Shown here in pieces: positions 19,967-46,429 of a stretch of DNA of 51,318 nt. Every line of letters starts with the position of its first letter. The first letter of the stretch is position 1. Source of the DNA: Ichthyophthirius multifiliis. Lineage: Eukaryota; Ciliophora; Oligohymenophorea; Hymenostomatida. The notes under the pieces were generated by a model. The model was not told the DNA's origin, made no database searches, and saw only the letters and a program-made list of their open reading frames with translations. The position numbers and the translations under genes are program-made. The stretch lies in NCBI RefSeq assembly GCF_000220395.1, contig NW_004086157.1:1-51318 (forward strand), given 5' to 3'.

Positions 19967-22900
19967 TCAAATTTATTTAATTTCGTAATATTATTTTAAA
20001 TATTATACAATATATTTATTTTCCTAAATAAGATTTATTTAGAATAATTTCAAGTGATTTTTAGTCTACTCTAATTCCTTTTTATATTTTCTAAAAATAT
20101 ACATCCATCTTAGTAATTAAAAAATAACAACAAAAGCTATTTAAAAAGTAAATAAAGTAAATCCTATATTTTAAATATATTAGAAACTTTACTAAGCAAT
20201 ATAATTAAAATACTATTCTAAATCGAAAAAAGTATCATTTACAATTTTAAAAGCCTTATCCATTTCTATCATAAAGTTACTTTCTTTCTATTATTTTATT
20301 AAAAAAATATTCAAAACTTCACTACTACTATTAGCCTCATATTTTTTAAAAAGACTTGAAAAAAAATCTAATTGGGATTTAACATACACTAATAAACCTT
20401 ATTTTAATATCCCGCCCATTAATTATTCACATTCGTCCATATAAATTTAACCTCCATTATGGAAAGTATTAGTATAAAATTTTTTCGTATTACATAGGTT
20501 TCCGAATAATATTTATGAATAATATTCGTTATGTAGAATTTCGCTTTGTTTGTTTTCTTATAAAGAATTTAATAATTTTTATATTTAAATTGTATATTAA
20601 GAATTAATTTTATCTATAGAAGCTGCTACTTGGAAGAAATAAGAAGCCTATGGATCCAAATCTCTATTTAGAGAAGAGTTCCAGAGTCTAAAATGAATTG
20701 ATATATTTAATATTAGTTAGCCTACTATGTCCACTATATAACTCCTATATTGTAAATTTAAACTTCTTTCTGATGTAAATTACATATAATATAATATAAT
20801 CGTTATTGGCTATATAAGAATTAAACCTAAAGAGAAAACACTCCAAAAGAGAAGATTTTTTTTCAACTTTGGTAATGTTCGGAATTGTGCTGTTAGTTTT
20901 TTTCTTATAGTAGTAGATTTTAATAATTAAATGTCTTTTTATTTAGGTTAAGGAAGCTAATCAAGTATTTGGATATTGTTAATACTTGTTTGGAATTATT
21001 ATTATATATATTAAAGTTTTACTATTTGGAAACATCCAAGAAGTTTAAGGATTTTTTCTTTTTCGGAAACTTTGAAAAGGCTAATTGGAATAATTAGGAT
21101 AAAAATAAAAAAGGAAATTCCAAAAATAATAATTAAGTTTAAATAGTTTAATTGCTTTTAGTTTTTTATTTCTTGCTGTTTTTTTATTTCTTCCAAAGCT
21201 CGTATTTTTTAAACTTCAGTGTTTAATATGTTAGTATTTTTATATAAGAAAAGCTACTATTCGAGAATTAAAGGAGTTTCTATATCTATATTTCTCATTA
21301 CAGTAATATATCTTTAAAAGCAAGTAGATAGGATAACCTGATGACTTGAAGTTATATTATTTTAAGGAAATTTATATATATAAAATATTTAAACTAAAAA
21401 AGGGTTATTTTATTATATTTCGAATTATTTTGGTTATATTTAATTATAATAATCAATAAAATCTTATTATAAGCTATTTTTTATATATTATATTCTATTA
21501 TATATAGTTTGCATTATTTATTTCTTTTATTTAATTTATAGGCTTTTATTTTCTATAGTTCTTAAAAATGACTCGTCTTTTACAGCTATTATAATTTTTA
21601 GGTACATTATTATTTATGTATTGACGTTTTTATATAGGTTGTTCTGTTATCTAAATTGTATATAGGTTTATATGTAGAGGAAAATAGTTATAAAAATTGA
21701 GAAATTTATTAAAAATAAGGAAAGGAAATTTATTTTGTTAAGCATTGAAAAGTTGTATTTTTATTTTATTTGATTTACTAATTTTGTTTTTTGGATTTTC
21801 GTATAGTTTGTTGCAGTTTAAGTAGTTTAAGATTTATCGCCGGTTGCTTTTATATCGTTAAAAGAATTACCGGATGGATTTAAGGTATATGTAAAGTCTT
21901 AAAGAGTATTTTTTAGTATATTTTTAGAAGAATTTTTGTTTTTGGTCTTTAATTAGAGCTTTTAGAGGTATGTTTGCATTTTTTCATTATAACGATTTAT
22001 TTATATAATAGTTTCATTGGATTTTGCTTTTTAAATTTGAACATTTTCTTATATTTTTAGCTTTTCAGTTTTTGATTCTTGGATACTTTCAGAAGATTAA
22101 TTATCTAAAATATTTTAATTTTAATTTTAGGTATAATTGCTTAAAGTACTTTACTTTGTTTTATTTTCTTTAGTAATATTGAGTAATTAGTAATACATTT
22201 AGAGAATTTTTTGCTTTTTTTTCAATGTATTAATTTATCTACAATAGTTTATTTCTATGTAATAAAATGTTTTCCCGATTTTAGTTTATAAAGTACTAAT
22301 TTTAAATTAAATTAAATAAACAGATTAATTTATTAGATCTTAAAATCTTTGAAAATTAGGAAAATTAGAATTTTTATAACTAGAAGTTTGAAGCTTTAAT
22401 GTTTAAATATTATTTTAAATTATCAAAAATGAACAGAATTATTTATTATATAAAATTTTATTTCTTTAAATTAATTTTGTCAACGGTATTAATTAATCAA
22501 TATTAATGTTTTTAAATTAATCTTCTATTTTTTTAATTTATTTTTGTTATTTAAATGTTTTTGTTTATTATTTTGTTATTTAATTTTTACTTAAAGATAC
22601 AGATTAATATAATACATTAGTATATATGCTTTCAGTGTAATCTGTAATTTTTTATTATGTATTAAAAAGCATGTATTATATATCTGTTTTTATTTAAGTT
22701 AATATTATAAATATTCCAATATCAAAATTTTAATTAATTATTTTTAATCTTATTTAAACTGGTATTAAAAAGCATTTATAATTAAGGGCAAATGCTGATG
22801 TACCTTTTATAATATATATATATATATATATAAGTATTTATATATTTATTTATAAATATATTTATATATATATAATATACTATATACTCTTATTAAATAT

Positions 22901-24470
22901 ATACATTTCTCCTTTTTCTTTGAAATTATTAATCATATTATTGTGAAATTATGATAATGCTTTTGGTATAATAGAATCTAAAGGCTTATTAATTATGAAA
23001 TTATTGTCTATTTAAAATATATCTTTGAAGTTTTTGGAAACTTTATTTATTAATATTTCATTTGAAAGAAGCGAAGAATATAAAACGCAAGAATTTTAAT
23101 TAAAAATATCAAAAAATTATTTTATTTTTTTTCTTTTTTAATATTTTTGCTATATATTCTTACTTTTCTTTTTTTCTTTTTATGTTTAATTGCAATAATA
23201 TTTCGCCTTTCTATTTTTAAAATCCATTAATTTCATAAATATTTACTATAAATAATTTAATTAAGAAGATGTTGTATTAATACTATACAGAAGTACAAAT
23301 TATTGCTTTAATTATTTCAATTAAGTGTATAGTTTTTACGCGAAATTATCCACTTTTTATAAATCTAAAAGATAATCACACAAAATTTTATAAAAATTAC
23401 AAGTTTCGATTAATTATTTTAATAAAAAAGCTTATACTTATGCTAATTTTTCTTCAAAAAAAATAGTATCTTCAAGCGCGAGTTTTTAGTTTTGCAAATT
23501 TTATAAATGTAAATAATTTTTGAATTTTAATTTAAGTTTTTTGAATAAAATACTGAGGAAAAATTTTTCTTAAAACTTTAAAATAGAATAATAATTTTTT
23601 TGAAAAAAATAAATTTTAATAAAAGCTTTTATAAAATTATTTTAGACTTCAAAAAGAAAACTTAAGTATGAAAAATATATTTTCACCTCATTTTTTTTCT
23701 TTTTCGATAAAAATATTTCATACAAATTCTCATTATAATGTTTAATATATTATCTTCTATAATTCGGCAAAACGTAATTATTAAATTTGTCTTAAAGATT
23801 TTTTTCCTTAAATTAGTTACAAAAACACTTATATTATAGATTATCCTCTTCAAAAAATTCACATTTCATATTATGGTTAGCATATATATTTTCGAAAAAA
23901 ACACCTTCCATCTTTAAGTAATCTTCAAGTAAAAAAGAAAAATAATCGTTACTAAATCTTATATAAATATCCAATAAATCTCCTTTATTTATTACTTAAC
24001 CCTGCTAATTCAAAAAAATGTTTTTTCTATATTTTAAATTTATATTATAGCCAATTTTATATCCTAGGATTATGTAAATTAAAAGAATTAAAATTGTTTC
24101 GCTTTCAATTATAATTTTAGAAAGAAAAAGACCAAGACATATAAAGAAATTAATAAAACATAATAACTAGTATATGTAGAATATTTTAAAATCAAAGTAT
24201 ATTTATTCGAGGTAATTTTAGAGTATTTTAAAAGAAATATAAATAAGAAATACTATAAGAGAACTTTATTGTTCTAAAAAATATATTATAATTGTACAAA
24301 TGTATTAAATTGTAAATCTAAATATTTCTAAAATCGAAACTTTCTTTTATAAAAAATCTTTTCTATTAAATGTATAATCAAAATCGTGTAAAATTATTAA
24401 AATACCTTTATTAGAAAAAATAAAATTATTATTGATATTATATAAATTATATATAAATATAAATATAAAT

Positions 24471-24521
<51 letters not shown>

Positions 24522-24614
24522 TTATTTATATGTTATTTATTATTTCACCTATTTTGTATATTAATATTAAATTTATAAAAGATATAAATTTCTAAACATT
24601 TGTTGACTCCTCAT
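19967..24614 (-). CDS. giant multipass membrane protein with PAS domain (ciliate PAS sensor type)
   Basis: About 1500 codons in a single frame apart from one 84-bp intron (22804-22887). The N-terminal part, after a probable first exon MRSQQMFRN (ATG 24614) and an intron holding a long TA repeat, contains several hydrophobic helices such as CFINFFICLGLFL and ILILLIYIILGYKIGY. A long cytosolic region follows. The PAS core lies at about 23105-22700: SCVLYSSLLSNEILINKVSK, NFKDIFQIDNNFI and LDSIIPKALSQFHNNMINNF, continuing after the intron as TSAFALNYKCFLIPVQIRLK. The C-terminal half has more membrane helices, including LNLIIIFGISFFIFILIIPI and NIGFTLFTFQIAFVVIF, with an ectodomain between them, and ends at TGA (TCA 19967-19969). 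This architecture fits a large ciliate family of PAS S-box membrane proteins whose ligands and outputs are unknown. No kinase or cyclase domain is visible. It ends only 29 bp from the convergent gene to its left. Confidence 0.8.
22804..22887 (-). other. 84-bp intron in the PAS domain
   Basis: GTATATAGTA...ATAAAAG, mostly TA repeats, phase 1 on both sides. Splicing gives ...FNKS-TSAFALNYK, which continues the PAS fold smoothly. Confidence 0.75.
24475..24516. repeat. (TA)n microsatellite, probably intronic
   Basis: About 20 TA units lying between the probable first exon and the membrane region of the PAS gene. Confidence 0.9.
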
Positions 24615-28740: not shown

Positions 28741-29363
28741 TTTAATGATATTGCTTTTTAAGTTATTTATTTATATTTTTATTTTTATATATTATTTTTT
28801 TTTCTTAATTTTATTAAATTTGATTTATTAATTGCTTTTTTATTTTGCTTACAAAATAAAATAAATACATAAAAAATAAAATAATTTAAAAACAAAAAAA
28901 AATGAATGTTTGATAAAAATTTAATAATATTAATAAAAAATTAACTTACAAAATAAATAAATTATATTATTATTTTTATTTTAATGTTTATTTAATAAGT
29001 ATTAGTATATTTTATAAATTTAATATAAAAATTTTATTCAAAAAAATAATTAAGAATACTCAAATTCTATAATTCTTATTAAAGTTAATAAATAAAATAT
29101 AATAATATAATATATAAAAATAAAAAAATTATTTTTATAATTAATTTTTATTTTTGATATTTATAAGAAAAATAAATATATTTTGTTTATTTAAAAAAAT
29201 TAATAATAAATTTAAAAAGAAAAAAGAAAAATGTTTAAATATTTTAATTAAAAAAACAAAAAACTTAGAAAATATTAAATATTCTAAAAATAACAAGTAT
29301 TTACAAATATTTTATATATATTTGTTGACTTATTATTAATATATCTATTTAACTTAATGTAAC
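28741..29363. other. AT-rich spacer upstream of the phosphodiesterase and tRNA
   Basis: Short A/T-only reading frames here (for example 29154-29339) run into the tRNA or have no real composition. Nothing else seen. Confidence 0.5.
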
Positions 29364-29436
29364 ACCCGTCTAGCTCAGTCGGTAGAGCGCTAGCCTTTTA
29401 AGCTAGTGGTCAAGGGTTCGAGCCCCTTGGTGGGTG
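29364..29436 (+). tRNA. tRNA-Lys (anticodon UUU)
   Basis: A complete cloverleaf without intron. The acceptor stem ACCCGTC pairs with GGTGGGT (29429-29435). The D arm is GCTC/GAGC, the anticodon stem CTAGC/GCTAG with loop CTTTTAA and TTT at 29397-29399, the T arm AAGGG/CCCTT with TTCGAGC, and the discriminator G at 29436. Internal promoter boxes A (TAGCTCAGTCGG) and B (GGTTCGAGCCC) are intact. It is the only GC-rich island in several kb. The decoded AAA codon is very frequent in this genome. Confidence 0.97.
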
Positions 29437-29438
29437 TA

Positions 29439-33817: not shown

Positions 33818-34524
33818 TTATAAGGCATATCTAATAATAAGAAATTTAAATCTTAAAATATTTTTTTTTTAAAAAAAAAATGAAAAACTTATTAATATAA
33901 ACTTATATTTAAAAATGAAACTTTTTATTTTTATAATATTTAAAAAATAAAACTTACATATAAAAAATTTGATATAATTATTATATATATTAATTGATAA
34001 TATAAATATATATTTTTTATTTTTTTTTAAAATTGTTTTTTTAATATTTTTTTTAATTTTCTTTTTTTAAAAAAATTCAATTAAAAAAAAAAAAAGAATA
34101 TAAATAATTTTCTTTTTTTATTGTTTTTTTTTATATAGTCTTCTAAAAAAAAATAGAAAAAAAATATATACAAGTAATATAAAGTAGTTAGTTAATTAAT
34201 TTAAAATTGCTTAAATTAAATACAAAAGAAAAGAAAAGAAAAGGAAAAAAATATTTTTAAAAAAAAAATTTAAATAATTAAATTAAAAACTATATAAGTT
34301 TAATATATATATATACACTGTTTAAATTAAATTTTTTATATAATAATTTTTTATTTTTTAATATAATCAAAAGTTTTAAAGAAATTAATTTAAATTGTTT
34401 AATTGTTTTTGTAATTTTTAATTTATTTGATAAAAAATATTAAAATAAAAAATAATTAAATTAAATAAAATTTTGATATATAATAACAATATTATTAGTT
34501 TATATATTTATTTTATAATAATTT
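33818..34524. other. AT-rich spacer upstream of the MORN gene
   Basis: Contains homopolymer runs and no credible coding. The promoter of the MORN gene should lie at its right end, but no motif is recognisable. Confidence 0.5.
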
Positions 34525-35861
34525 ATGGGCCAATAATAATGCTTTAAAAACTAATAAATATAAGAATAACAACAATATTAAACTTGTGAAATAATACCTA
34601 TATAAGAAACAAATGATTAATAATATAAAATAATAAACATTGTTGCAAAATAAAATTGTATAAAATTAAATAATAAAATTAAAAAAAATAAAAAAAGAAT
34701 AATTTACAGAATAACACAAAGAAGAAGATTGTATGTAATAAAGTTATGCTGAATTAAAAAGTTAGTATTTTGTTACCAATAATAATTTTGAGACAAAAAG
34801 TAATATTTAAATTACTGAAAATTAACAAATAGAACATTTACCTAATCCATAAAAAGCATAATATACATAATTTGTTTCCTCAAACTAAAACAAAAATATA
34901 ATAGAAACTTTATAAAAATTAGGAGATTTTAATTATAAAGATAATAGATTTTTTTCTCAATAGTTAACAAATTATGATTTAAATTTACCTTTTTTGGGTC
35001 CTTTTATATTTTAAGGGGGATAAATATATATAGGATAATGGAATAACGGGAATAGGCACGGATAAGGAAGATAATATTGGAAAGAGGGTAGTATATATGA
35101 AGGATATTGGGAAAATGGTAAAATAAAGAATATATACTAAAAAAAAAAAAAAAAAGATCAAGCACATGGTTTTGGAAGATTAATTTATTAATCAGGAGAC
35201 GCATATATAGGTTAATGGAAAAACGACTAGTGCGAAGGATTTGGAATTTATTATTTTTTCAATGGAGGAAAATATGAAGGATAATGGATTGGAGATAAAT
35301 ATAATGGAAAAGGAATAGAACATTGGCCTGATGGGTCTTTTTATGAAGGAGATTTCATTAATTAAAATAAATAAGGGAAAGGAGTGTTTAAATGGAATGA
35401 TTAATCGATATATTAAGGGGAATTTTATAATAATTTTATGCATGGATAAGGGAAATATAATTGGCCAGATGGAAAATGTTATGAAGGTTAGTGGGAAAAT
35501 AATAAAATGTAGGGAAAAGGGGTTTTTATATGGAATGATGGAAATAGATATGAAGGAGAATATTATGATGATTTGAAAAATGGATTTGGTGTGTTTTATT
35601 ATTCAAATGGTAAATATATTTTATACATTTTTTATTGCTTTTAAATAGTTATTTATTTTTTCGTTTGTTTAAGGTATGTAATTTATAGGTAATTGGAAAA
35701 ATGGAAAATAACATGGAGAAGGGGTTATTGTAGATAAAAATAAAAAAGAATAAAAAACTAAATGGGATAATGGTGTTTTAATACAATGGTTTATTTATTT
35801 TATAATATATTTTTGATTTTATATTATTAGGGTAAAGTAAGATAATAAAACTAATTGTTGA
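34525..35861 (+). CDS. MORN-repeat protein with N-myristoylation signal
   Basis: MORN repeats bind lipids or act as extended membrane/cytoskeleton linkers; in alveolates they occur in cortical and kinase proteins. ATG 34525 gives MGQQQCFK, a Gly-2 myristoylation consensus with a palmitoylatable Cys. About 70 residues later LGPFIFQGGQIYIGQW begins at least eight tandem MORN units, for example QWNNGNRHGQGRQYW, QAHGFGRLIYQSGDAYIGQW, NGKGIEHWPDGSFYEGDF and MHGQGKYNWPDGKCYEGQW. Four small introns fit in phase: about 34659-34698, 35118-35156 (39 bp), 35610-35673 (64 bp) and 35789-35830 (42 bp). Removing them gives an uninterrupted frame to TGA 35859-35861. No kinase domain is present. Likely role: a membrane-anchored cortical scaffold (inference). 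Confidence 0.85.
35118..35156 (+). other. 39-bp intron between MORN units
   Basis: GTAAAATAAAG...A-run...AAG. Excision gives YEGYWEN-DQAHGFGR with normal MORN spacing. Confidence 0.8.
35610..35673 (+). other. 64-bp intron in the MORN gene
   Basis: GTAAATATA...TTGTTTAAG, phase 1. Confidence 0.8.
35789..35830 (+). other. 42-bp intron in the MORN gene
   Basis: GTTTATTTA...TATTATTAG, phase 2. It completes a TGG codon. Confidence 0.75.
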
Positions 35862-35940
35862 AAAAATAAACGACATATTTTTTTGAAAAATATATATTAA
35901 ATATACGTATATAATAATTTTATATATTTATTTATTTATA

Positions 35941-35974
35941 ATTATATTTATATTTATATTTATATTTATATTTA

Positions 35975-36010
<36 letters not shown>
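35941..36010. repeat. (ATTTAT)n then (TA)n microsatellite
   Basis: Six or seven hexamer units followed by about 15 TA units. Confidence 0.85.
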
Positions 36011-36013
<3 letters not shown>

Positions 36014-36770
36014 ATAATTTTTTTTTTTTTATGTTTTTATGTTTTTTATATTTTTATTAATTTTTTTTTTATTATTATTATTTTTTTTTTTTTTACATAT
36101 AATTTCTGTCCTTATTTTTGTTTGTAAAGCATAAATAATTAATTTGATTTTTTTTTTTTTTATATAAGCCTTTTTTCTAATTATATTTATATAAAAAAAA
36201 AAATTCTTTACAACTTTTATATATCATTTATTTATTTTTAGAATTTTTTTTTTTCAATATTTTTTCTCTCAAAAAATATATAAATATATATTTCGATTAA
36301 AAAAGTTATTTTCTTATTTCATAATAAAATATGAAAAAAATATATATTTTAAATATTCTTATCTTACATTTATACTTTGATAGCTTCTTTTATATGTCAA
36401 AGAAATTTTATTCATATAATTTTTTTTACTGAATTAAAATAAGGTCTTAGTCTTATTTTTTAACATAGATTCAAATATAAAGGATTTCTAGAAAAAATAT
36501 TTTGTTTTAATTAAAAAAATAAAGTTATTTATTAATTTTAGAATATAATTTAAATGAATAAGTAATTAATTTGATAATTATTTATAAGGAAAGCATTTAA
36601 ATAATTAATAAATAAAAAAAATGAAGAAATAATATGATTTAAATAGTAATTAATAATATATTAAAAAGATTATATTAAAAATATAAGAAAAATTGTAAAA
36701 TGAATATATATATATATATATATATAATAATTATTATATTATATTAAATCAGGTTTTGTTAGTTTTTTTT

Positions 36771-37073: not shown

Positions 37074-38699
37074 TCATTATTTACTAATAAAATAAGTTTA
37101 AATAATTTCTTATGTATTATTCATATTGCCTATACTAACATTTTTAGCTTTTACAATACAAAATTAATTTATATTTTATTTATTAATCCAATTTTTAGTA
37201 CTTTAACTAATCATAACCTTCCCAGGTTCTCCACTTTATTCCATTTTATTAGCAATAAGAATATCTCTTCCATAAACATCATATCTAACAACTTTTGTAC
37301 CTAAGATTCCTCCAATTATTCTCTTTCCAGTATGAACTCCTATTCTCATATTTAAAAAGGTATAATTTTATCGGATTCTATTAATTTCATCAATCATTTA
37401 TAATGCGAAATTAATTACTTTATAATATAAATATATATATATATATAAATATCATAATGTATTGTATTTTTTACCATTTACAGCTTCTTTTGCCTTTTCT
37501 TAAACAGTATTTAACCTTTCAGCATCTACAAAAGATAAAACAACATAGCAATCACCGATAGTATATAATTTAAAAACGTTGTTTAGTAAACATAATTAGT
37601 CAAAGCTTTCAAAAAGATCTTTTAACATTCTCATAACTTTTTTAGGTTCTTTTACTTTATCAGAAAATTCAGTAAAACCTTTGATATCAGCAAATAAAAT
37701 AGTGACATCTTCAAATTAATCTGTTAGTTCTCTTTTATTTTATAAATTTCCTCTAAATTTTTTCAATGCCTAATTTATATGTATTATATATAAATATATA
37801 TAAGTTTAAAAATATATTTAAATAAAAAAAATATGTTTTAAAGAAAAAGAATATTTAATTAAAAAAATGAAATATATTTTTATATAAAAAGAATATATAT
37901 ATATATATATATTTATTTATATATCATTATTTATATATTTTTATTACTATTGCAGGTAATAATTAATTAACAAGTAATTGCATAGATTCTTTTTTTTGGT
38001 TTATTTTTGATGTTTAATTATAATTTTTTTTAGCAGTATTTCTATATATTTATCCTTTGTATATCATAAATGTAACAAATGTAAATATAAAAAAGGTATT
38101 TTCTACATCTATTTGTTTCCAAATAAATCCAATATATAAGCTTATAAAAATAAATCCAAAAATAATAATTTCAACAAAATTGAATATACTTAAATGATTA
38201 AACCATTTATATAAAACTACACTTTCAATTATTTAGACAATAATCATTTTCTAATTATCGTCACACATTTTTGCCTAAAAGAATTATGTAAACACTGCAT
38301 ATATAAAAATTGCATATATTAATTTTTTATATTTTTGATTTTTATAGGCTTTTTCTAATATTTAGAAAGCTGTTATAAATAAAAAGACAGTTATAATTCT
38401 TAAAACAAATATTATAAGATGATTTTAACATGTATCGTATGATATTGTGAATAATATAGTACTTATTTATTATTGGAAAAATAAAAATAATAATGAATAT
38501 TTATTTTCTATAAAAGTAATTTGTTATATCTATTTTTTAAATTTATTAATGGTTTATTAAGGATTAGTATTTTTATTTATTATTGTATTATATTTAATAG
38601 AATCATTATTTATATTATCTTATTCTTCTTCAGATTCATCTTCCTCGCTTTCATCTTCAGAAAAACTTGATAATTCCTATTTATTTTTTAAATTAAATG

Positions 38700-38741
<42 letters not shown>

Positions 38742-40375
38742 CATTAATATATTCTGTATTTTATTTTTATTCATTAGATTTATAAGGAGTTTATTCATCT
38801 CCTAAATTAATAGTTTTGATATTTTTTCCTTTAAAGATATTAATAATATTATTTTTCTATTTAATTTGACAATTATTATTTTCAATTTATTAATTACTAT
38901 GTTCAATCTATTAATTAATATTATTAATAATACTAAAATTGCTATTTTTTTTTATTCCAGTATTTTTAATATTAACAAGTGCGGATTGAAATTTTTTACT
39001 TGTAAAAAGTTCCCCAATTTCATATGCAGTCATTAATTCTTTTCCTTTAGGCTAAAATTAAATCGGTTTAAAATTATGATTCATCTACTTTACCTCATCT
39101 TTAACACTTTCTGATATTAAAATTTTACCATAATTACACTAAGCACATATTCTTGATGTTGTATTTACAGTATCTCCTATTAGAGAAAACTAGGGTTTTG
39201 GATTTCCTATAATACCGGCTATTACTTCGCCTTTATTTATTCCTATTTTTAATTTAATCCGATTGTTTTCAGAACCCCATCTGGTATTTTATGCACTTTC
39301 AAGCATTTCTTTTGCCATAAGAACCAGTCTTTCACCTTTTCCAATATGTTTTAACTACTCAATGATATTATTTTCAGATTCTTCAATACCAGTGGCAGCC
39401 ATATATGTTTTACCGACAGTCTCGATTTTTTAAGCGCCGTATTTTTCACAGATATTGTCGAATTTACGGAAAAGATCATCTAAAATTACTACTACATTGT
39501 TCTTTTCTTATTAAATTAATTAATCGAATTCACATATATCGGCAAACAAAATAGCTACTTACTAAAGGCTTTTTGCCATTTCAAATTTTTTGGTATTTTT
39601 TCGATTTTATTTTATATAGTTTTCAACGAATTCGGGTACTAGCATTGAAAGAATTTAATTATTTTGCTCTTTTACGGATTTGATGTCTTCTAGAGCACAA
39701 AAATGTTTCCTTTATTCTTATTAATTTCTATATAAACTAAAAAAAGAGTATATATAGATATATGAAGTTAATAAAATGAATTAAAAAATGAAATATATTT
39801 CAATTATTTGAGATCTTTTATCAGTATATTATGTTAGTATTATATATGTTTACACTATATAATTTAAAGTGTGGATTATTAAGACTTTTAATAAGGAAAT
39901 ATTTAAATTAATTGTCGTTATTAGGTTTAAAATTAGATTAATAAGAATTAAATTTATTTTTTTATCCAAAAGTTAAATTATTAGTATTATTAGAGTACTC
40001 AAAAATATTATAGAAGCTGTTGTTTTGTAGTAGTTTTTTTAGAAATGAGAGGAAAATATATATATTAAAAGTAATAAATAGATAATTATAAATGATATTT
40101 TAGTATAAAAAAATTAATTATTTGTTTAATTTATAATAATATCAAATATTATATAGACTGTAATGAATATTATAGTCTATTTTTTTAAATAAAAAAATAA
40201 ATTAAATTTTAAGTATTTTTTATATTTTTACTAATATATAGGTTATTCGAAATTATTTTATATAGTTCAAGATATTTTTTAATTTAAATTTTTCTTCCAG
40301 TGTTTCGTCTTTAAAATCTTAAGTAAATTTATTTATATATAAAAATAGTTTATCTTAATTATTTTCTAACACTAT

Positions 40376-40430
<55 letters not shown>

Positions 40431-41792
40431 TTTTATATTTAAATAAATAAAAAATATATACTATCTAAAACACTCTATTCAATTTTTTTGAAAGAACTAA
40501 AAATTTTCTATATGTATTTTTTTATATTTATATTTCTTTTCTCTTATTCTTCCCAATAATATCCAAAAACTCCCCAAAATTAACAAATTAAAAATCCACA
40601 TATTAAATTAAATACAAAACAGAAAATTAGTCCTTAATTTTCAAATAATAAATCTCCTAAGTGCTACCAATCAACCATTTAGTCCCAAAATATCTTCTAG
40701 AAGTAAATTAACCAAGTAATCAAGCCTCCTTATAGAAAAATAAAAAAAATAAAAATCTTCAAAGAGAACAAGAAGGCGATTTTAAATGCTAAAATACCCA
40801 CTAGACTTAACAAAATAATCTATATAGATTAATAAAGCTCACAATTTTTCCCTTATTTATTAATGAAATATTAAATAGAATACATAGTATTATAATAAAT
40901 GAGAATAGCTTAAAGAAAGGTTTCTAAAATACCCTCAAACTATAATTTTCTGTAAAAATTTTGCCTTTTTTTTGTTAAAATAAAATCCTTTTAATCTTCA
41001 TAGAAAAGTATCACTGAAAAAAAAAGCGAAAAAACAAAAGAAAAATCTAAAATAATAATTAATTGCCAAAATAAAAAGGAATTCCCAATAAAACCACTAT
41101 CCCAAACAAAAAAACAAACAGTAAAACTGACCAATATTTGCGCATAAAAAACACTGAAAATTATCTTCTGGATTTTATTGGAAAAAAAAACACCTTAGTC
41201 TATTATTTCCGAAACTTCTTATATTTAATTAATTTATATATCCCCAAAATAACTATAAAATTAATTATTCTCAACTTTTTATTCTAATTCAATTGAAATA
41301 TCAGAACTTTTGTTCATATTAGAATCTTTATAGCCCTCACCTAATGATAATATAGTACTTTCAGAGTCTTTAGTTGATTTTATTATATCTAAAAGGAAGC
41401 CTTTGGTAAATTAATCGATGTTATAGCCTATTAGTTTAGTTATAAATTATAATATGAATATAAAATGCTATAATAAATTGTTATCTCTGAGAATTTTGTA
41501 AAATGTAATACCGTTAAGGTACATTATGTATTATTTATTAGGATTTTGCTTTTCTTTTAAGAAAAATAAAATAGATCTTATTTAATCCCAAATATGAGAT
41601 ATATTAGATTCGCAGCATATATTTAAAATATTTTCTTAATTTAATTTTATACCTATATTACTAATATATATAAATAAATATAAAATATTAGTATAGATTA
41701 TATTTAATTTTTAGATATTTTTTTTTTATTAAAAAAAAAAAAAACAAATAATTATTTAATAAACTATTTTATATAATATAATAAAAATAAAA

Positions 41793-41854
<62 letters not shown>

Positions 41855-44800
41855 ATCTTTTTACATTAATGTATTTATGGTTTTTTATTTTATTTAATTA
41901 GACAAAATAAATAGGTTTTTATTTTTTTTATCAAAGTTTTCATATAATTAAAGCGCTTATTCATTTATTTTATCTTTTATGCCTATTAAGGCCAAATATT
42001 CCAGATCATTTTCCAAAGTTTTAGATAAATTTCTAATATCATGGTCTTATATTTATATATTCGATTATAAAAGATTATACTAATCTATATATTCGTTAAA
42101 CTATTACATACTAAGAGTTTTATAAGCAAAAGTTAAAGGTAAAATACCCTTTTTTTAATAGTCGTTTATTAAAAAATCTAAATTTTCATGCTGAATTTTA
42201 TTTAATTTTAATTATGATTTTATATTTTAAGCATACCCTTAAGTATATATATAATATTAATTATCTATTTATGTAAAATCTTATAATTAAACAATTACAG
42301 AAAAGTTATGTTTTTCTTCTTTTTAATAATTTATTACTTTAGTAAAAATTTCAACTAATTTTCTATTCTATATATTTAAATATATATTAATTTATATATG
42401 TAATAGAATATTTTTTTATTTTTTTACATTAAAATATATAAACATTTTGTCTTTTTAAGTATATAATTAATAGCCTGAATTTCGTGCAAATTTAAGTAAA
42501 GTGTTTTAAATAGGAAGTTCTATATTTTTTATGGATTAAAGTTAACCAAATTATGAAGGTTCTGAATAATTACATATTAAAATTGCATAAAATAATTATT
42601 ATAGATTGATATTTTTTTGATTATGATCTTTTTATTATTATAATTAATATATATAATCTTCGTTTTTATAAATCTTTATATCATTTAAATCTTATAATAT
42701 AAATTAATCTTTTTATATTTGAAATTATTCTTATGTAATACTTAAAGTTTATTGTTTTTCTTCTTTATTTTATATAATATTTTTGTCTTCAATTTAATTA
42801 TTTATTTGTATTTGATTTTCTATTTTTGATTAATCATCTTTTAGTTATTGTTATATTTGCTAATTCTATAAATATGCTAGATGTATTTATTTTTAAATTA
42901 ATACTTTTTCTTATAAATTAGATTCCTTATTTTAATTATCATTATTACTATGTATTTATTAATCAAATTCATTTACAAAGTCTTGCTTTTAAACTAAATT
43001 TAAAATATCAATTTCATCTTTATGAAAGCTTTTTAAAATTGGAGAGTTTGAACTATATTTTGCCATAGGTTAATAATCTATGTCTTTTAAATTATCATAA
43101 ATTTTATCTGATTTATTTATTGTTGTTTGTTTTTAAAGTGTATCTAATTATTATAAACCGTTATTAAATTTATTATTACTATTAAAAATAGATTGAAATT
43201 CTAATATATATTTTTAAAATTATAATATATATAAATGTAGATATATATTTATATTTTTATATACACATTTAACTATCCCCAAGAATTTATAATTAATTTT
43301 CTATTTTCAAATGATTTATATAATTATTATTATTTTCTTTTTAATAGCTATTTATAATTTTTAAACCTTTTAAATCTGAATTTTACTAACTTTATAAATT
43401 GTTTAAACTTTAAGTACTATCTAATTATTTTCCTAATATTTATATTAATTTGCTTTATAAACTTTCAGGATCAAATTCATATTAAGAATTAAATATATTT
43501 ATTTATTAGATTTCTCTTTCACCTTTTAAATTAAATATTGATTTATCCATAAATATATAATCAATCTATTATATATATATATATATAAATTTATTATATA
43601 TAATTTTTTATACTTATCCAATATTACTTATTACATCTGGATTTCCTATATTAATTTTATTATTTGGATTTTTCTTTTTAATAATTTTTTAAATCTTATA
43701 CATTTCTATAATTTAAAACAAATCCAAAATTCCATAAATTAATGGCGGGAAAATTTACGAATGTAAAATTAATTAACGAATAAATTTCAAAAACTACTAC
43801 TAATTAATTTCAATAAAAATCGAATAATAACTATTTATTTAATAAGAAAGTCCTATAATATTAGTAATACTAATGAAAAAGATATAAAAAAGGCAAAGAA
43901 AGCCATAATATTAAATAATATAGATAATGTAATAATTATCTTTAAAAATTCCTTTTTTATTTTAATTATTTCTATTTAACATTATTTAAGTATTCATTCC
44001 TCCGAATACAACTAATCCATAAATCCTATATTATATTAATTTTAAAATTTTATTAATTTTTTGTTTTTATAAAAACCAATCCATATTTTTAGTCAAATAA
44101 ACAATACTTCCTCTAGGTATAAAATTATCATTATTTAATACTTCTACTTTAGGGTCTTTTAAAAGTTTTAATTAACCATTAAATTATAGATTATGTTGAT
44201 TTTTTTCCTCATAAGATAATTTTAAAGTTAAGCAATTTTTATATCTATTAAAATATGATTTTCTATGATCTTTTAGATTTATAACTATAAGTAAATTTTA
44301 AGTATTTTTAATAGAAATATATATTTATTTATTTAAATTACTTTTAGTTAAACTTGGTGCATTTATTTATCTATATTCATCTTTTCCGTCTACATAGAAA
44401 GTATTGATATAACAAATTGCTTGTTTATTTCTTATTTTATTCGAATCTAATAAAATTATGTCTGCAGGCGATATTTCTCCATGGCAGATTCTAATCACGT
44501 CTCCAACTTTAACTTATTCCCATTTTATTTTAATGGTTTTTAGATTATCTTCTTTTTACTTTTTTTTTTTTTTTTAAAAAAAAAGAAATAAAATAAAAAA
44601 TAATATTTATAATAGACTATATACTGGCATTGTTTTATTTCTTCGACCTAAAGTAATGTTTTTCATAAAAAAAGAAAATCTCTATTAATCTTAATGTAAT
44701 GATTTTTTGGGATTTTATTATTTTTTTTTTTTTTTTTTCTAAACGTGTTATTTTTCCCTTATTTTACCTCTCTTTATTATTTTAAGTCAACAAAAAAATA

Positions 44801-45328
44801 TTTTTTTATTATATTTACTTAACAATTTTATTAATTAACTTATTTGTCCATTTATTTTCTTTTTTATAAAATTATTAAATTTTTAATTATATGTATTAAA
44901 ATATTAAAAATTAAAGGGCATATATATATCCATCTTTTTTGAAATAATAATATTTAAATAAAAAATGTATATATTTTTTTTTAAAAAAATAAAATTAAAT
45001 ACTTATTATATGGGTCTAATTCAGGTTTTATTAAGACTATTAGAGTTATTATAAGATTAATTTAATTTCCGATTTTATAAAAATTAGAAATCATTATTTT
45101 TGGCAAAGACTTATAATTTTTATTTATATATTTAATTAAAAATTATTTTAATTTTTTTTTACTGAATATGATTGTGTATATATATTATTTAATTCAGCTT
45201 AATTATATGATACCAATCTTCCTTTTTTAATTCTAACTAAATAAAAAAACATTTTTTTTAATTATTTGATTTATATCTATATAAAAATAATATTGTTTCA
45301 ATATTTACTGTTTGCGGAAATACTTCAT
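37074..45328 (-). CDS. giant guanylyl cyclase fused to a P4-ATPase-like domain
   Basis: The enzyme should make cGMP from GTP at a membrane. The N-terminal half (45.3-40.2 kb) has P4-ATPase landmarks: NNIYTQSYSSLPKIM before TM1, WEQVKVGDVIRICHGEISPA, YGLVVFGGMNTQIMLN, then IDYIFMDKSIF at the phosphorylation site (normally DKTGT), LIGIKDKINEQALQLYENFD, and ILSLGEGYKDSNM (normally GDGANDVNM). The catalytic motifs are thus degenerate. The C-terminal half has six TM helices and a first cyclase domain (about 39670-38950: AILFADICEFDQ, KIETVGKTYMAATG, FSLIGDTVNTTSR). An acidic Ser/Glu linker (SFSEDESEEDESEEE), six more TM helices and a second cyclase domain follow (TILFADIKGFTEFSD, YTIGDCYVV, RYDVYGRDILIANKM), to TGA (TCA 37074-37076). 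Metal Asp pairs lie in the second domain, the purine and ribose residues in the first: the inverted C2-C1 order known from ciliate and apicomplexan cyclases. Start ATG 45328 is tentative. Confidence 0.85.
37418..37474 (-). other. 57-bp intron in the second cyclase domain
   Basis: GTAAAAAATAC...TTATAAAG, phase 1, with an internal TA repeat. Joins KAKEAVN to the helix INFALQMIDEINRIR. Confidence 0.75.
38702..38739. repeat. (TA)n microsatellite in a cyclase intron
   Basis: Lies between the first cyclase domain tail and the acidic linker. Confidence 0.85.
40379..40422. repeat. (TA)n microsatellite in a cyclase intron
   Basis: About 22 units, followed by T10. It lies in the region of the gene between ATPase-like and cyclase halves. 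Confidence 0.9.
41797..41856. repeat. (TA)n microsatellite in a cyclase intron
   Basis: About 22 units plus a shorter block, between the degenerate GDGxND region and the LIGIKDK exon. Confidence 0.9.
43566..43613 (-). other. 48-bp intron at the pseudo-phosphorylation site
   Basis: GTATAAAAAA...ATAATAG, phase 0. Joins VISNIGQ to IDYIFMDKSIF, the exact place of the P-type ATPase DKTGT motif. Confidence 0.8.
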
Positions 45329-46429
45329 CCTAAAAACAATGTATACATCTTTATTATTAATGATTGTTTAAAATCATTTATTATTTTAACTTATTTATAT
45401 ATATCTGTCTTTCAATTATTATAAAACAAAGAATGCTTCTTTATTATTTTGTTAAATATAATAATTTATTATTTATTTTGTTTATTATAAAAAATAATAA
45501 TAATAATTAAATATTATTTAAATGATTTAATAAATATTATTATTAATAATATTGTAAAATTATTTAAATAAAAAGAATATTAATAAATTAAACACTACAA
45601 AAATACATTTTTATACTTAAAATATAAAAATATTTAAATAATATAATTATTTATTAAATTTCCTTTAATAAATTTATACATTTTTATAGTATTATATTTT
45701 ATTATATATATTTTATATTAACTTTTTTTTAATATATAATTTTATTATTATGTTTTTTGTTTTTTTTTTTTGATAATTTAAATTAATTAATTTTTAAAAA
45801 CAAACCGTTTTATTTTAAAATAAATTATTAATATTTATTATTTAAATAACTTAATTTAATAAATATTTAATAAATTATTATTTTAAAATCCATTTTAATT
45901 AATAATTATAAATAATAATATTTACTTTTATTTAATGAATAAAATACTAAAAAGAAAGTAAAAATGATTTATCTTAAATTAATATAAAATTATTACAAAA
46001 AGGTTTTTATTTTTTTTATTATTATTTTTAATAAATTAATATTATAAAAAAATAATCTTATTATATATAAAATATTTTTAAAAAATAAATTATTAAATAT
46101 ATATATATATATAACATTATTTATTGTAAATAAAAATTTAATTAAAATAAAATCTTTTTATATTTTTTATTTTAATAATGTTTATTTATTTTAAATTTAA
46201 TTAAAAATGTAAGAAATAAACTAATGTAATTAAAAACAAATAATTTAATCAATTAATTCATGCTAATATGTAATTTAATACTGCTAAGATTATTAATAAA
46301 TAAATTTTACTGAATTTTATTTTTGTACAATAAATGAAAATGTTTTAGTTTTAGATATATTAACAGTATTAATTTAATTTTATTTTTTCAATTAAAAAAA
46401 ATAAAAAAATAAAAATAATTTTATTTAAA
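45329..46429. promoter_or_regulatory. intergenic region between divergent cyclase and exchanger genes
   Basis: About 1.1 kb of very AT-rich sequence between the 5' ends of two divergent genes, so it must hold both promoters. No recognisable element is seen. First exons of either gene may also hide here. Confidence 0.4.

What the first reader, a model, noticed from the sequence alone, without database searches (positions are those of the whole stretch)
37074..45328. Guanylyl cyclase fused to a P4-ATPase-like half whose catalytic motifs have decayed
One continuous minus-strand gene pairs lipid-flippase landmarks with a 12-TM double cyclase. The phosphorylation site reads MDKSIF instead of DKTGT, the hinge reads GEGYKDSNM instead of GDGANDVNM, and the site where LTGDK is expected reads LSNQ. 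The fold is kept but ATP-driven transport looks impossible, so the ATPase half may be a regulatory or folding module. The fusion itself is established for ciliate and apicomplexan cyclases; the degree of decay here is the point of interest.
Basis: partly seen in the sequence, partly recalled or inferred. Interest (0 to 1): 0.8.

Follow-up and report, generated by a model that had tools for sequence, protein, structure and literature searches.

The report
Guanylyl cyclase with a dead flippase half
A ciliate gene joins a cGMP-making enzyme, intact by sequence, to a lipid-pump half that has lost its pumping motifs, and relatives suggest this loss is old, widespread and happened in a recognisable order.

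Summary
The minus-strand gene (37074 to about 45.25-45.38 kb, at least 10 exons, 2280 aa modelled) is an ATPase-guanylyl cyclase; two other contigs of its 45-Mb genome carry proteins named Ichthyophthirius multifiliis. Besides MDKSIF, LSNQ and GEGYKD, its actuator motif reads DGKD (DGET in pumps) and its TM4 motif PPLI (PISL in pumps). The phosphorylatable Asp is kept. Six key cyclase residues are present.

The decay is not peculiar to this gene. The genome holds 17 such double cyclases; DKTGT is kept in 4, lost in 8, unread in 5. This gene, three paralogues and two Tetrahymena proteins form a clade that shares the losses, so they most likely predate the Tetrahymena-Ichthyophthirius split. Two clade members have an ATPase half about as constrained as their cyclase half: a maintained pseudo-flippase, not a relic.

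The unexpected part: in 108 relatives scored at both sites, DKTGT without the actuator Glu occurs 42 times, the reverse never. The Glu is absent in 62 of 62 scored members of the Paramecium/Tetrahymena/Ichthyophthirius half. Dephosphorylation chemistry seems to have gone first, while five cyclase catalytic residues stayed invariant in 135 of 135. A degenerate ATPase half is known (PfGC-beta); my searches found no report of this ordered loss.

The parts
37074..45377 (-). whole ATPase-guanylyl cyclase gene; stop TGA 37076-37074; 5' end uncertain (ATG at 45377 or 45252)
   Evidence: 5' end by eye against the C274 model
45003..45109 (-). N-terminal P4-like membrane exon (SLPKIMISNFYKIG...); the 2280-aa model starts at Met 45094
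   Evidence: blast match to C583 and by eye to the paralogue models
43614..44640 (-). exon: TM2, actuator domain, TM3-TM4
44379..44390 (-). actuator motif DGKD where P4-ATPases have DGET (catalytic Glu replaced by Lys)
43737..43748 (-). TM4 motif PPLI where flippases have PISL; the three Ichthyophthirius siblings keep PISI or PVSI
43265..43565 (-). exon with phosphorylation-site region IDYIFMDKSIF
43533..43550 (-). MDKSIF: Asp and Lys kept, TGT lost
41865..43143 (-). exon: diverged nucleotide-binding domain with Q/N-rich insert, and start of the second P-domain part; by eye TQGYA stands where flippases have KGAD and siblings CKGDP/CKGEP
41894..41905 (-). LSNQ where LTGDK is expected
40462..41660 (-). 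exon: second P-domain part and TM5-TM10
41324..41341 (-). GEGYKD where GDGxND is expected
40230..40371 (-). linker exon and start of the first cyclase TM set
38743..40177 (-). exon: first six-TM set and first cyclase domain (C2-like; KIETVGK, QFSLIGDTVNTTSR; domain 39699-38995)
37948..38676 (-). exon: second six-TM set up to the start of the second cyclase domain
37475..37769 (-). exon: second cyclase domain, first part (C1-like; FADIKGF, TIGDCYV)
37075..37417 (-). exon: second cyclase domain, last part, up to the stop

Best explanation
The gene encodes a membrane guanylyl cyclase whose N-terminal half is a pseudo-flippase: descended from a P4-ATPase but unable to run the phosphorylation-dephosphorylation cycle that drives lipid flipping. 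Shown by sequence: the actuator Glu, the Thr-Gly-Thr of the phosphorylation motif, the TGD loop and the PISL lipid-path motif are gone, while the GTP-type base-selecting pair, both metal-binding Asp and the transition-state Asn/Arg of the cyclase are present. Shown by comparison: the loss is shared with three paralogues and with two Tetrahymena proteins, and in at least one pair of clade members the ATPase half is conserved about as strongly as the cyclase half. Inferred: the half is kept as a structural and regulatory module (membrane anchoring, probable CDC50-type partner binding, conformational input from lipid or another ligand) that sets the activity or place of the cyclase. Inferred order of decay: the actuator Glu went first (absent in all scored members of the Paramecium/Tetrahymena/Ichthyophthirius half), then DKTGT and TGD on the hymenostome stem of this clade, then the TM4 motif in this gene alone; the first GDG Asp was also lost here, and with another letter in C274.
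For: Motifs and splicing. Cyclase: E, N, R of the first domain and D, D of the second are present in 135 of 135 aligned proteins including this one, the base-selecting Ser in 131 of 135 (roles read against AC5/AC8/AC9). Shared derived state: in 6 of 6 clade members the actuator motif is DGK[DE], Asp-Lys is kept without TGT, [TS]GD is absent and GDGxND reads GxGYKD; clade support 100, its join with six Paramecium proteins that keep DKTGT 92. Constraint: C845/C274 aligned ATPase blocks differ at codon positions 1/2/3 by 0.23/0.10/0.40 (750 codons), the cyclase half by 0.22/0.13/0.41 (833 codons). Controls: TGDK and GDGxND in 16 of 16 stand-alone flippase loci examined (they were oriented by the GDGxND pattern), LDGETNL in 6 of 7 fetched stretches. 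Loss order. In yeast Drs2p, E342Q in DGET abolishes the PI4P-dependent ATPase but is reported to keep Cdc50p binding (PMC4230938, passages). In Toxoplasma, CDC50.1 serves as chaperone of the ATPase half of its GC (PMC9600588, passages).
Against: No expression, biochemical or structural data. The phosphorylatable Asp is kept in 6 of 6 clade members, which could mean residual phosphorylation. In this particular copy the ATPase half is less constrained (0.45/0.32/0.51 against C845) and its TM5-10 and first cyclase TM set are only 20-25% identical to siblings and Tetrahymena, so it may be drifting. The position of the mammalian phosphate-binding Arg is Lys here and varies in the family, although an Arg three residues on is kept in 131 of 135. 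In P. falciparum GC-alpha parasites with the ATPase Asp replaced could not be selected (PMC7858053, passages), so the module is thought active in a relative. CDC50 binding is not tested here.
Confidence: 0.72

Rival explanations
1. Hemi-active phospho-switch (concerns relatives, and does not exclude the best explanation for this gene): ATPase-cyclases that keep DKTGT but lack the actuator Glu autophosphorylate and stay phosphorylated, and that long-lived state, not transport, signals to the cyclase; this gene is a later member that lost even that.
For: 42 of 108 proteins scored at both sites have DKTGT without Glu, against 0 with Glu without DKTGT; the empty cell stays empty after collapsing similar rows (79, 64, 53 and 25 representatives). 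The Glu facilitates dephosphorylation of the aspartyl phosphate (PMC11225554, passages).
Against: The kept residues may be inert leftovers; many of these proteins also changed the TM4 and GDG motifs. One ancestral Glu loss could account for all 57 both-scored rows of the 78-row half, so the independent evidence is smaller than the row count (at least 7 state changes on the tree). This gene itself lacks TGT.
Confidence: 0.3
2. The ATPase half of this gene is non-functional baggage retained only because the fusion cannot easily be shortened.
For: Fast divergence of this copy, above all in membrane segments; loss of PISL, GDG Asp and TGD together.
Against: About 700 ATPase codons align with each sibling in one open reading (the splice search forbids TGA, so partly by construction); codon position 2 differs less than position 3 (0.32 against 0.51 with C845); C845 and C274 are under clear constraint; the losses are shared with Tetrahymena.
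Confidence: 0.15
3. Still a working flippase with unusual motifs.
For: Asp and Lys of the phosphorylation motif kept; siblings keep PISI/PVSI in TM4 and, by eye, CKGDP/CKGEP at the KGAD site.
Against: In this gene the actuator Glu is Lys, Thr-Gly-Thr, TGD and PISL are lost, and the KGAD site reads TQGYA by eye.
Confidence: 0.04
4. Pseudogene, assembly error or two separate genes.
For: A frame change near 45.2 kb at the 5' end that I could not resolve; no protein from a 51,318-base contig among the 120 listed homologues.
Against: 10 exons join in one reading; cyclase domains 66-71% identical to C845/C274 with the key residues kept; 16 further double cyclases in the genome, each with P4-like sequence upstream.
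Confidence: 0.04

Closest known systems
Ciliate and apicomplexan ATPase-guanylyl cyclases (Paramecium/Tetrahymena GC, TgGC, PfGC-alpha)
   Same: N-terminal P4-ATPase-like half, two membrane sets each followed by a cyclase domain, C1/C2 motifs inverted (inversion: PMC5746546, passages; here), GTP-type residues
   Different: TgGC is reported with DGET and DKTGT and PfGC-alpha with NGET and DKTGT (PMC6592433, passages); this gene has lost Glu, TGT, TGD and PISL
PfGC-beta
   Different: Different lineage; no ordered, clade-wide pattern is described in the passages I saw; its sequence was not compared here
T. thermophila P0003 and T. malaccensis P0002
   Same: Nearest listed relatives outside the genus; same derived DGKE, MDKIG, S[NY]EN, GDGYKD
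   Different: Keep a PLSV TM4 motif and the GDG Asp
Stand-alone P4-ATPases (DRS2, ATP8A1)
   Same: Order of A, P and TM regions in the N-terminal half
   Different: Catalytic motifs intact; not fused to a cyclase

Membership tests
ATPase-guanylyl cyclase fusion (alveolate GC) | P4-ATPase-like half and double class III cyclase in one open gene | tested here: met
   spliced model in one reading, DRS2 match E=1e-17, two PF00211 stretches; no transcript
ATPase-guanylyl cyclase fusion (alveolate GC) | GTP-type catalytic residues in inverted domain order | tested here: met
   first domain C2-like with E/S, N, R; second C1-like with D, D; mammalian Pgamma Arg position is Lys
Active P4-ATPase flippase | DKTGT phosphorylation motif | tested here: not met
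   MDKSIF; Asp kept, TGT lost
Active P4-ATPase flippase | actuator DGET Glu | tested here: not met
   DGKD
Active P4-ATPase flippase | TGD(K/N) and GDGxND of the P domain | tested here: not met
   LSNQ, GEGYKD
Active P4-ATPase flippase | PISL-type TM4 motif | tested here: not met
   PPLI
Active P4-ATPase flippase | KGAD of the nucleotide-binding domain | tested here: inconclusive
   profile finds none in 18 of 18 GC loci, but by eye siblings read CKGDP/CKGEP and this gene TQGYA, so the profile miss is weak evidence
Active P4-ATPase flippase | CDC50 partner | tested here: inconclusive
   CDC50 family matches on nine contigs of the genome; binding not testable
Active guanylyl cyclase | measured cGMP synthesis | not testable with these tools
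   residues only

The most novel reading that the evidence does not exclude
In the Paramecium-Tetrahymena-Ichthyophthirius half of the family, the flippase module fused to guanylyl cyclases stopped being a pump early, by losing the dephosphorylating Glu, and was remade into a signalling part. Members that keep DKTGT act as one-way phospho-switches; others, including this gene, act as phosphorylation-free scaffolds that gate a fully active cyclase.
Probability: 0.35. Interest if true: 0.8.

Novelty: new variant of a known kind. Interest (0 to 1): 0.55.

Why it matters
Why alveolates weld a lipid pump to a cGMP cyclase is open: a 2017 review says no functional activity had been shown for the N-terminal domain (PMC5746546, passages). 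In Plasmodium GC-alpha, parasites with the ATPase-domain Asp replaced could not be selected, read there as an active ATPase upstream of cGMP synthesis (PMC7858053, passages). Natural loss of the chemistry, in what looks like a fixed order and with the cyclase untouched, separates pumping from regulation and makes the question testable in laboratory Tetrahymena and Paramecium.

Tried and rejected
Rejected: that the decay is unique to this gene (17 double cyclases of the genome, 120 listed homologues); that it is a pseudogene; that the missing motif letters are unrecognised introns (the 48-nt intron before MDKSIF is removed in the model, and paralogue models and Tetrahymena proteins show comparable losses at the same sites).

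Led nowhere: Linder et al. 1999, the founding paper, is not held, so whether it noted the missing Glu is unknown to me. An alignment made for structure prediction seemed to spread the end of the 399-aa exon over the cyclase part of the long homologues, so I ran no structure prediction and no fold search. A simple hydropathy count gave 15 segments in this gene and 22-26 in three relatives (the C845 model among them runs into another gene), which does not settle the TM number. The 5' end stayed ambiguous. A KGAD profile missed all 18 GC loci, but the models show KGDP/KGEP-type sites in siblings, so I do not use that miss as evidence.

Limits: the 120 homologues are those listed of 536 found, chosen by similarity to this gene's cyclase region; named ones are ciliates, many are unnamed. 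DKTGT and the actuator Glu were each scorable in 113 of 135 tree rows, both in 108. From 138 proteins P0001 and P0031 were dropped as duplicates of C845 and C576, and the truncated C687 locus was dropped. Three DKTGT readings (L017, L021, P0002) were set by eye from the alignment, and C576's actuator residue was taken from P0031. The tree is a quick search with long-branch warnings, one of them at the Paramecium-hymenostome join. Paralogue splice models are computed, not transcript-based; the L009 and L019 models run into what look by eye like neighbouring kinase genes. The codon-position comparison covers six alignable ATPase blocks (about 700-750 codons), not the insert-rich part of the nucleotide domain, and third positions are near saturation. 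Only 16 stand-alone flippase loci, from the top 20 of 47 PF16212 places, were examined as controls, and only 7 stretches for DGET.
Full report
What is there. Under the ciliate code (TAA/TAG = Gln; no standard-code frame of the window reaches 150 aa) the minus strand between 37074 and about 45.3 kb encodes one ATPase-guanylyl cyclase. A homology-guided splice search, then refined by hand at three introns, joins 10 exons into 2280 aa in one reading; the search forbids in-frame TGA, so the absence of stops is partly by construction. Two further 5' pieces, one with RCIHCFQDEVFPQ like the start of the C274 model (by eye), leave the true start uncertain (45252 or 45377); a frame change near 45.2 kb was left unresolved. 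The window is a whole 51,318-base contig, C669, of a 44.96-Mb, 937-contig assembly.

The motifs. I add two: the actuator loop reads DGKD where stand-alone flippases have DGET, and TM4 reads PPLI where they have PISL. At the KGAD site of the nucleotide domain a profile found nothing in 18 of 18 GC loci but matched all 16 stand-alone flippase loci examined. This is weak, because by eye the siblings read CKGDP or CKGEP there and this gene TQGYA. The 16 stand-alone loci (the top 20 PF16212 loci less three GC loci and one duplicate) all read TGDK and GDGxND; they were oriented by the GDGxND pattern. Six of seven fetched A-domain stretches read LDGETNL; the seventh gave no match.

The cyclase half. 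The first cyclase domain aligns better with the second domain of AC5, AC8 and AC9 than with the first, and the second with the first: the inverted order reported for alveolate enzymes (PMC5746546, passages). Across 135 aligned proteins the purine-selecting Glu, the transition-state Asn and Arg, and the two metal-binding Asp are invariant; the second base-selecting residue is Ser in 131; this gene has all six. The position of the mammalian phosphate-binding Arg is Lys here and varies in the family, with an Arg three residues on in 131 of 135. In the same proteins the ATPase motifs vary widely: a within-protein control.

Paralogues. PF00211 matches mark 17 double cyclases and one fragment. All 17 carry a P4-like second P-domain part. 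DKTGT is kept in 4 (C554, C662, C576, C77), lost in 8 (this gene, C583, C845, C274, C443, C323, C49 and the second C689 gene) and could not be read in 5. So this gene is one point on a series.

Age of the loss. On a cyclase-domain tree of 135 proteins this gene groups with C583, C845, C274 and the two Tetrahymena proteins P0002 and P0003 (support 100); six Paramecium proteins are the sister group (92, not starred, with a long-branch warning). All six members of the inner clade share DGK[DE], Asp-Lys without TGT, no [TS]GD, and GxGYKD. The Paramecium group keeps DKTGT, SGDQ and GDGYND or GDGFND, but already has [DN]GKS in the actuator loop. Within the inner clade only this gene lost the PxS-type TM4 motif. 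The GDG Asp is Glu here and Gln in C274.

Constraint. C845 and C274 differ at codon positions 1/2/3 by 0.23/0.10/0.40 in the aligned ATPase blocks and 0.22/0.13/0.41 in the cyclase half (its catalytic domains alone 0.17/0.09/0.38): the pseudo-ATPase is about as constrained as the cyclase half as a whole. For C845/C583 the figures are 0.33/0.16/0.50 and 0.26/0.18/0.49. C845 and T. thermophila share 60% (A domain), 49% (TM3-4), 32% (31 columns around the phosphorylation site), 40% (N/P middle), 56% (second P part) and 57% (TM5-10), against 64 and 67% in the cyclase domains. This gene is a faster copy: 0.45/0.32/0.51 (ATPase) and 0.37/0.25/0.51 (cyclase half) against C845. Its TM5-10 and first cyclase TM set are at 20-25% identity to siblings and T. 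thermophila (27-36% in the second set), but its cyclase domains at 66-71% to C845 and C274 (all).

Order of loss. Of 108 proteins scored at both sites, 19 keep DKTGT and the actuator Glu, 42 keep DKTGT only, 47 keep neither and none keeps the Glu only. The 78-row half of the tree (Paramecium, Tetrahymena, Ichthyophthirius, Pseudocohnilembus and two unnamed rows) keeps the Glu in 0 of 62 and DKTGT in 35 of 60; the 57-row half (Stentor, Blepharisma, Stylonychia and unnamed rows) keeps them in 19 of 51 and 27 of 53. The empty cell stays empty with one row per cluster at 90, 80, 70 and 60% identity (79, 64, 53 and 25 rows). The Fisher value printed ignores relatedness and is not used. One ancestral Glu loss could account for all 57 both-scored rows of the 78-row half, so the independent support is smaller than the row counts suggest. 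The tree needs at least 19 changes of the DKTGT state and 7 of the Glu state, without telling gain from loss; that loss is the direction follows from homology to flippases and from the reported TgGC (DGET) and PfGC-alpha (NGET) motifs (PMC6592433, passages).

How it most likely works. The actuator Glu facilitates hydrolysis of the aspartyl phosphate (PMC11225554, passages). Its Gln mutant in yeast Drs2p has no PI4P-dependent ATPase but is reported to keep Cdc50p binding (PMC4230938, passages). A P4 module without that Glu should therefore fold and find its partner but not turn over. I conclude that this protein is a guanylyl cyclase carrying a pseudo-flippase kept as membrane scaffold and regulatory input. 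CDC50 family matches lie on nine contigs of the genome, so partners are available; binding and regulation are inference.

Prior art. The fusion, its spread in ciliates and apicomplexans, and a degenerate ATPase half in PfGC-beta are published (PMC6592433, PMC7858053, PMC5746546; passages). A 2011 fusion screen listed two copies in T. thermophila (PMC3143110, passages). Ten literature searches turned up no paper, in the listings and passages I saw, describing the missing actuator Glu or an order of loss in ciliate members. The library holds only open-licence papers, and the founding 1999 paper is not in it, so this absence is not strong.

Noticed in passing
L025 (G000:C687:36700-46699): A lone cyclase piece lies roughly 1 kb from an actuator-type region with an NKTRTLK phosphorylation site; looks like a truncated or rearranged family member.
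   Followed up: partly
loci L009-L011, L016 and many Paramecium rows: Members that keep DKTGT often lack the PISL-type TM4 motif (TM4 PxS-type in 12 of 48 scored rows of the 78-row half), while several Stentor-type members with broken DKTGT keep PISL: two different routes of decay.
   Followed up: partly
window 33998-36334 (+): MORN-repeat protein (PF02493, six stretches, 136 bits) next to the cyclase gene.
   Followed up: no
window 19967-24544 (-): Longest open frame of the window under the ciliate code (1525 aa), no Pfam match at E 0.01.
   Followed up: no
window 29363-29437 (+): tRNA-Lys (TTT).
   Followed up: no
window 45210-45345 (-): Frame change across an A-rich run between conserved N-terminal pieces; unrecognised splice or assembly indel, left unresolved.
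   Followed up: partly
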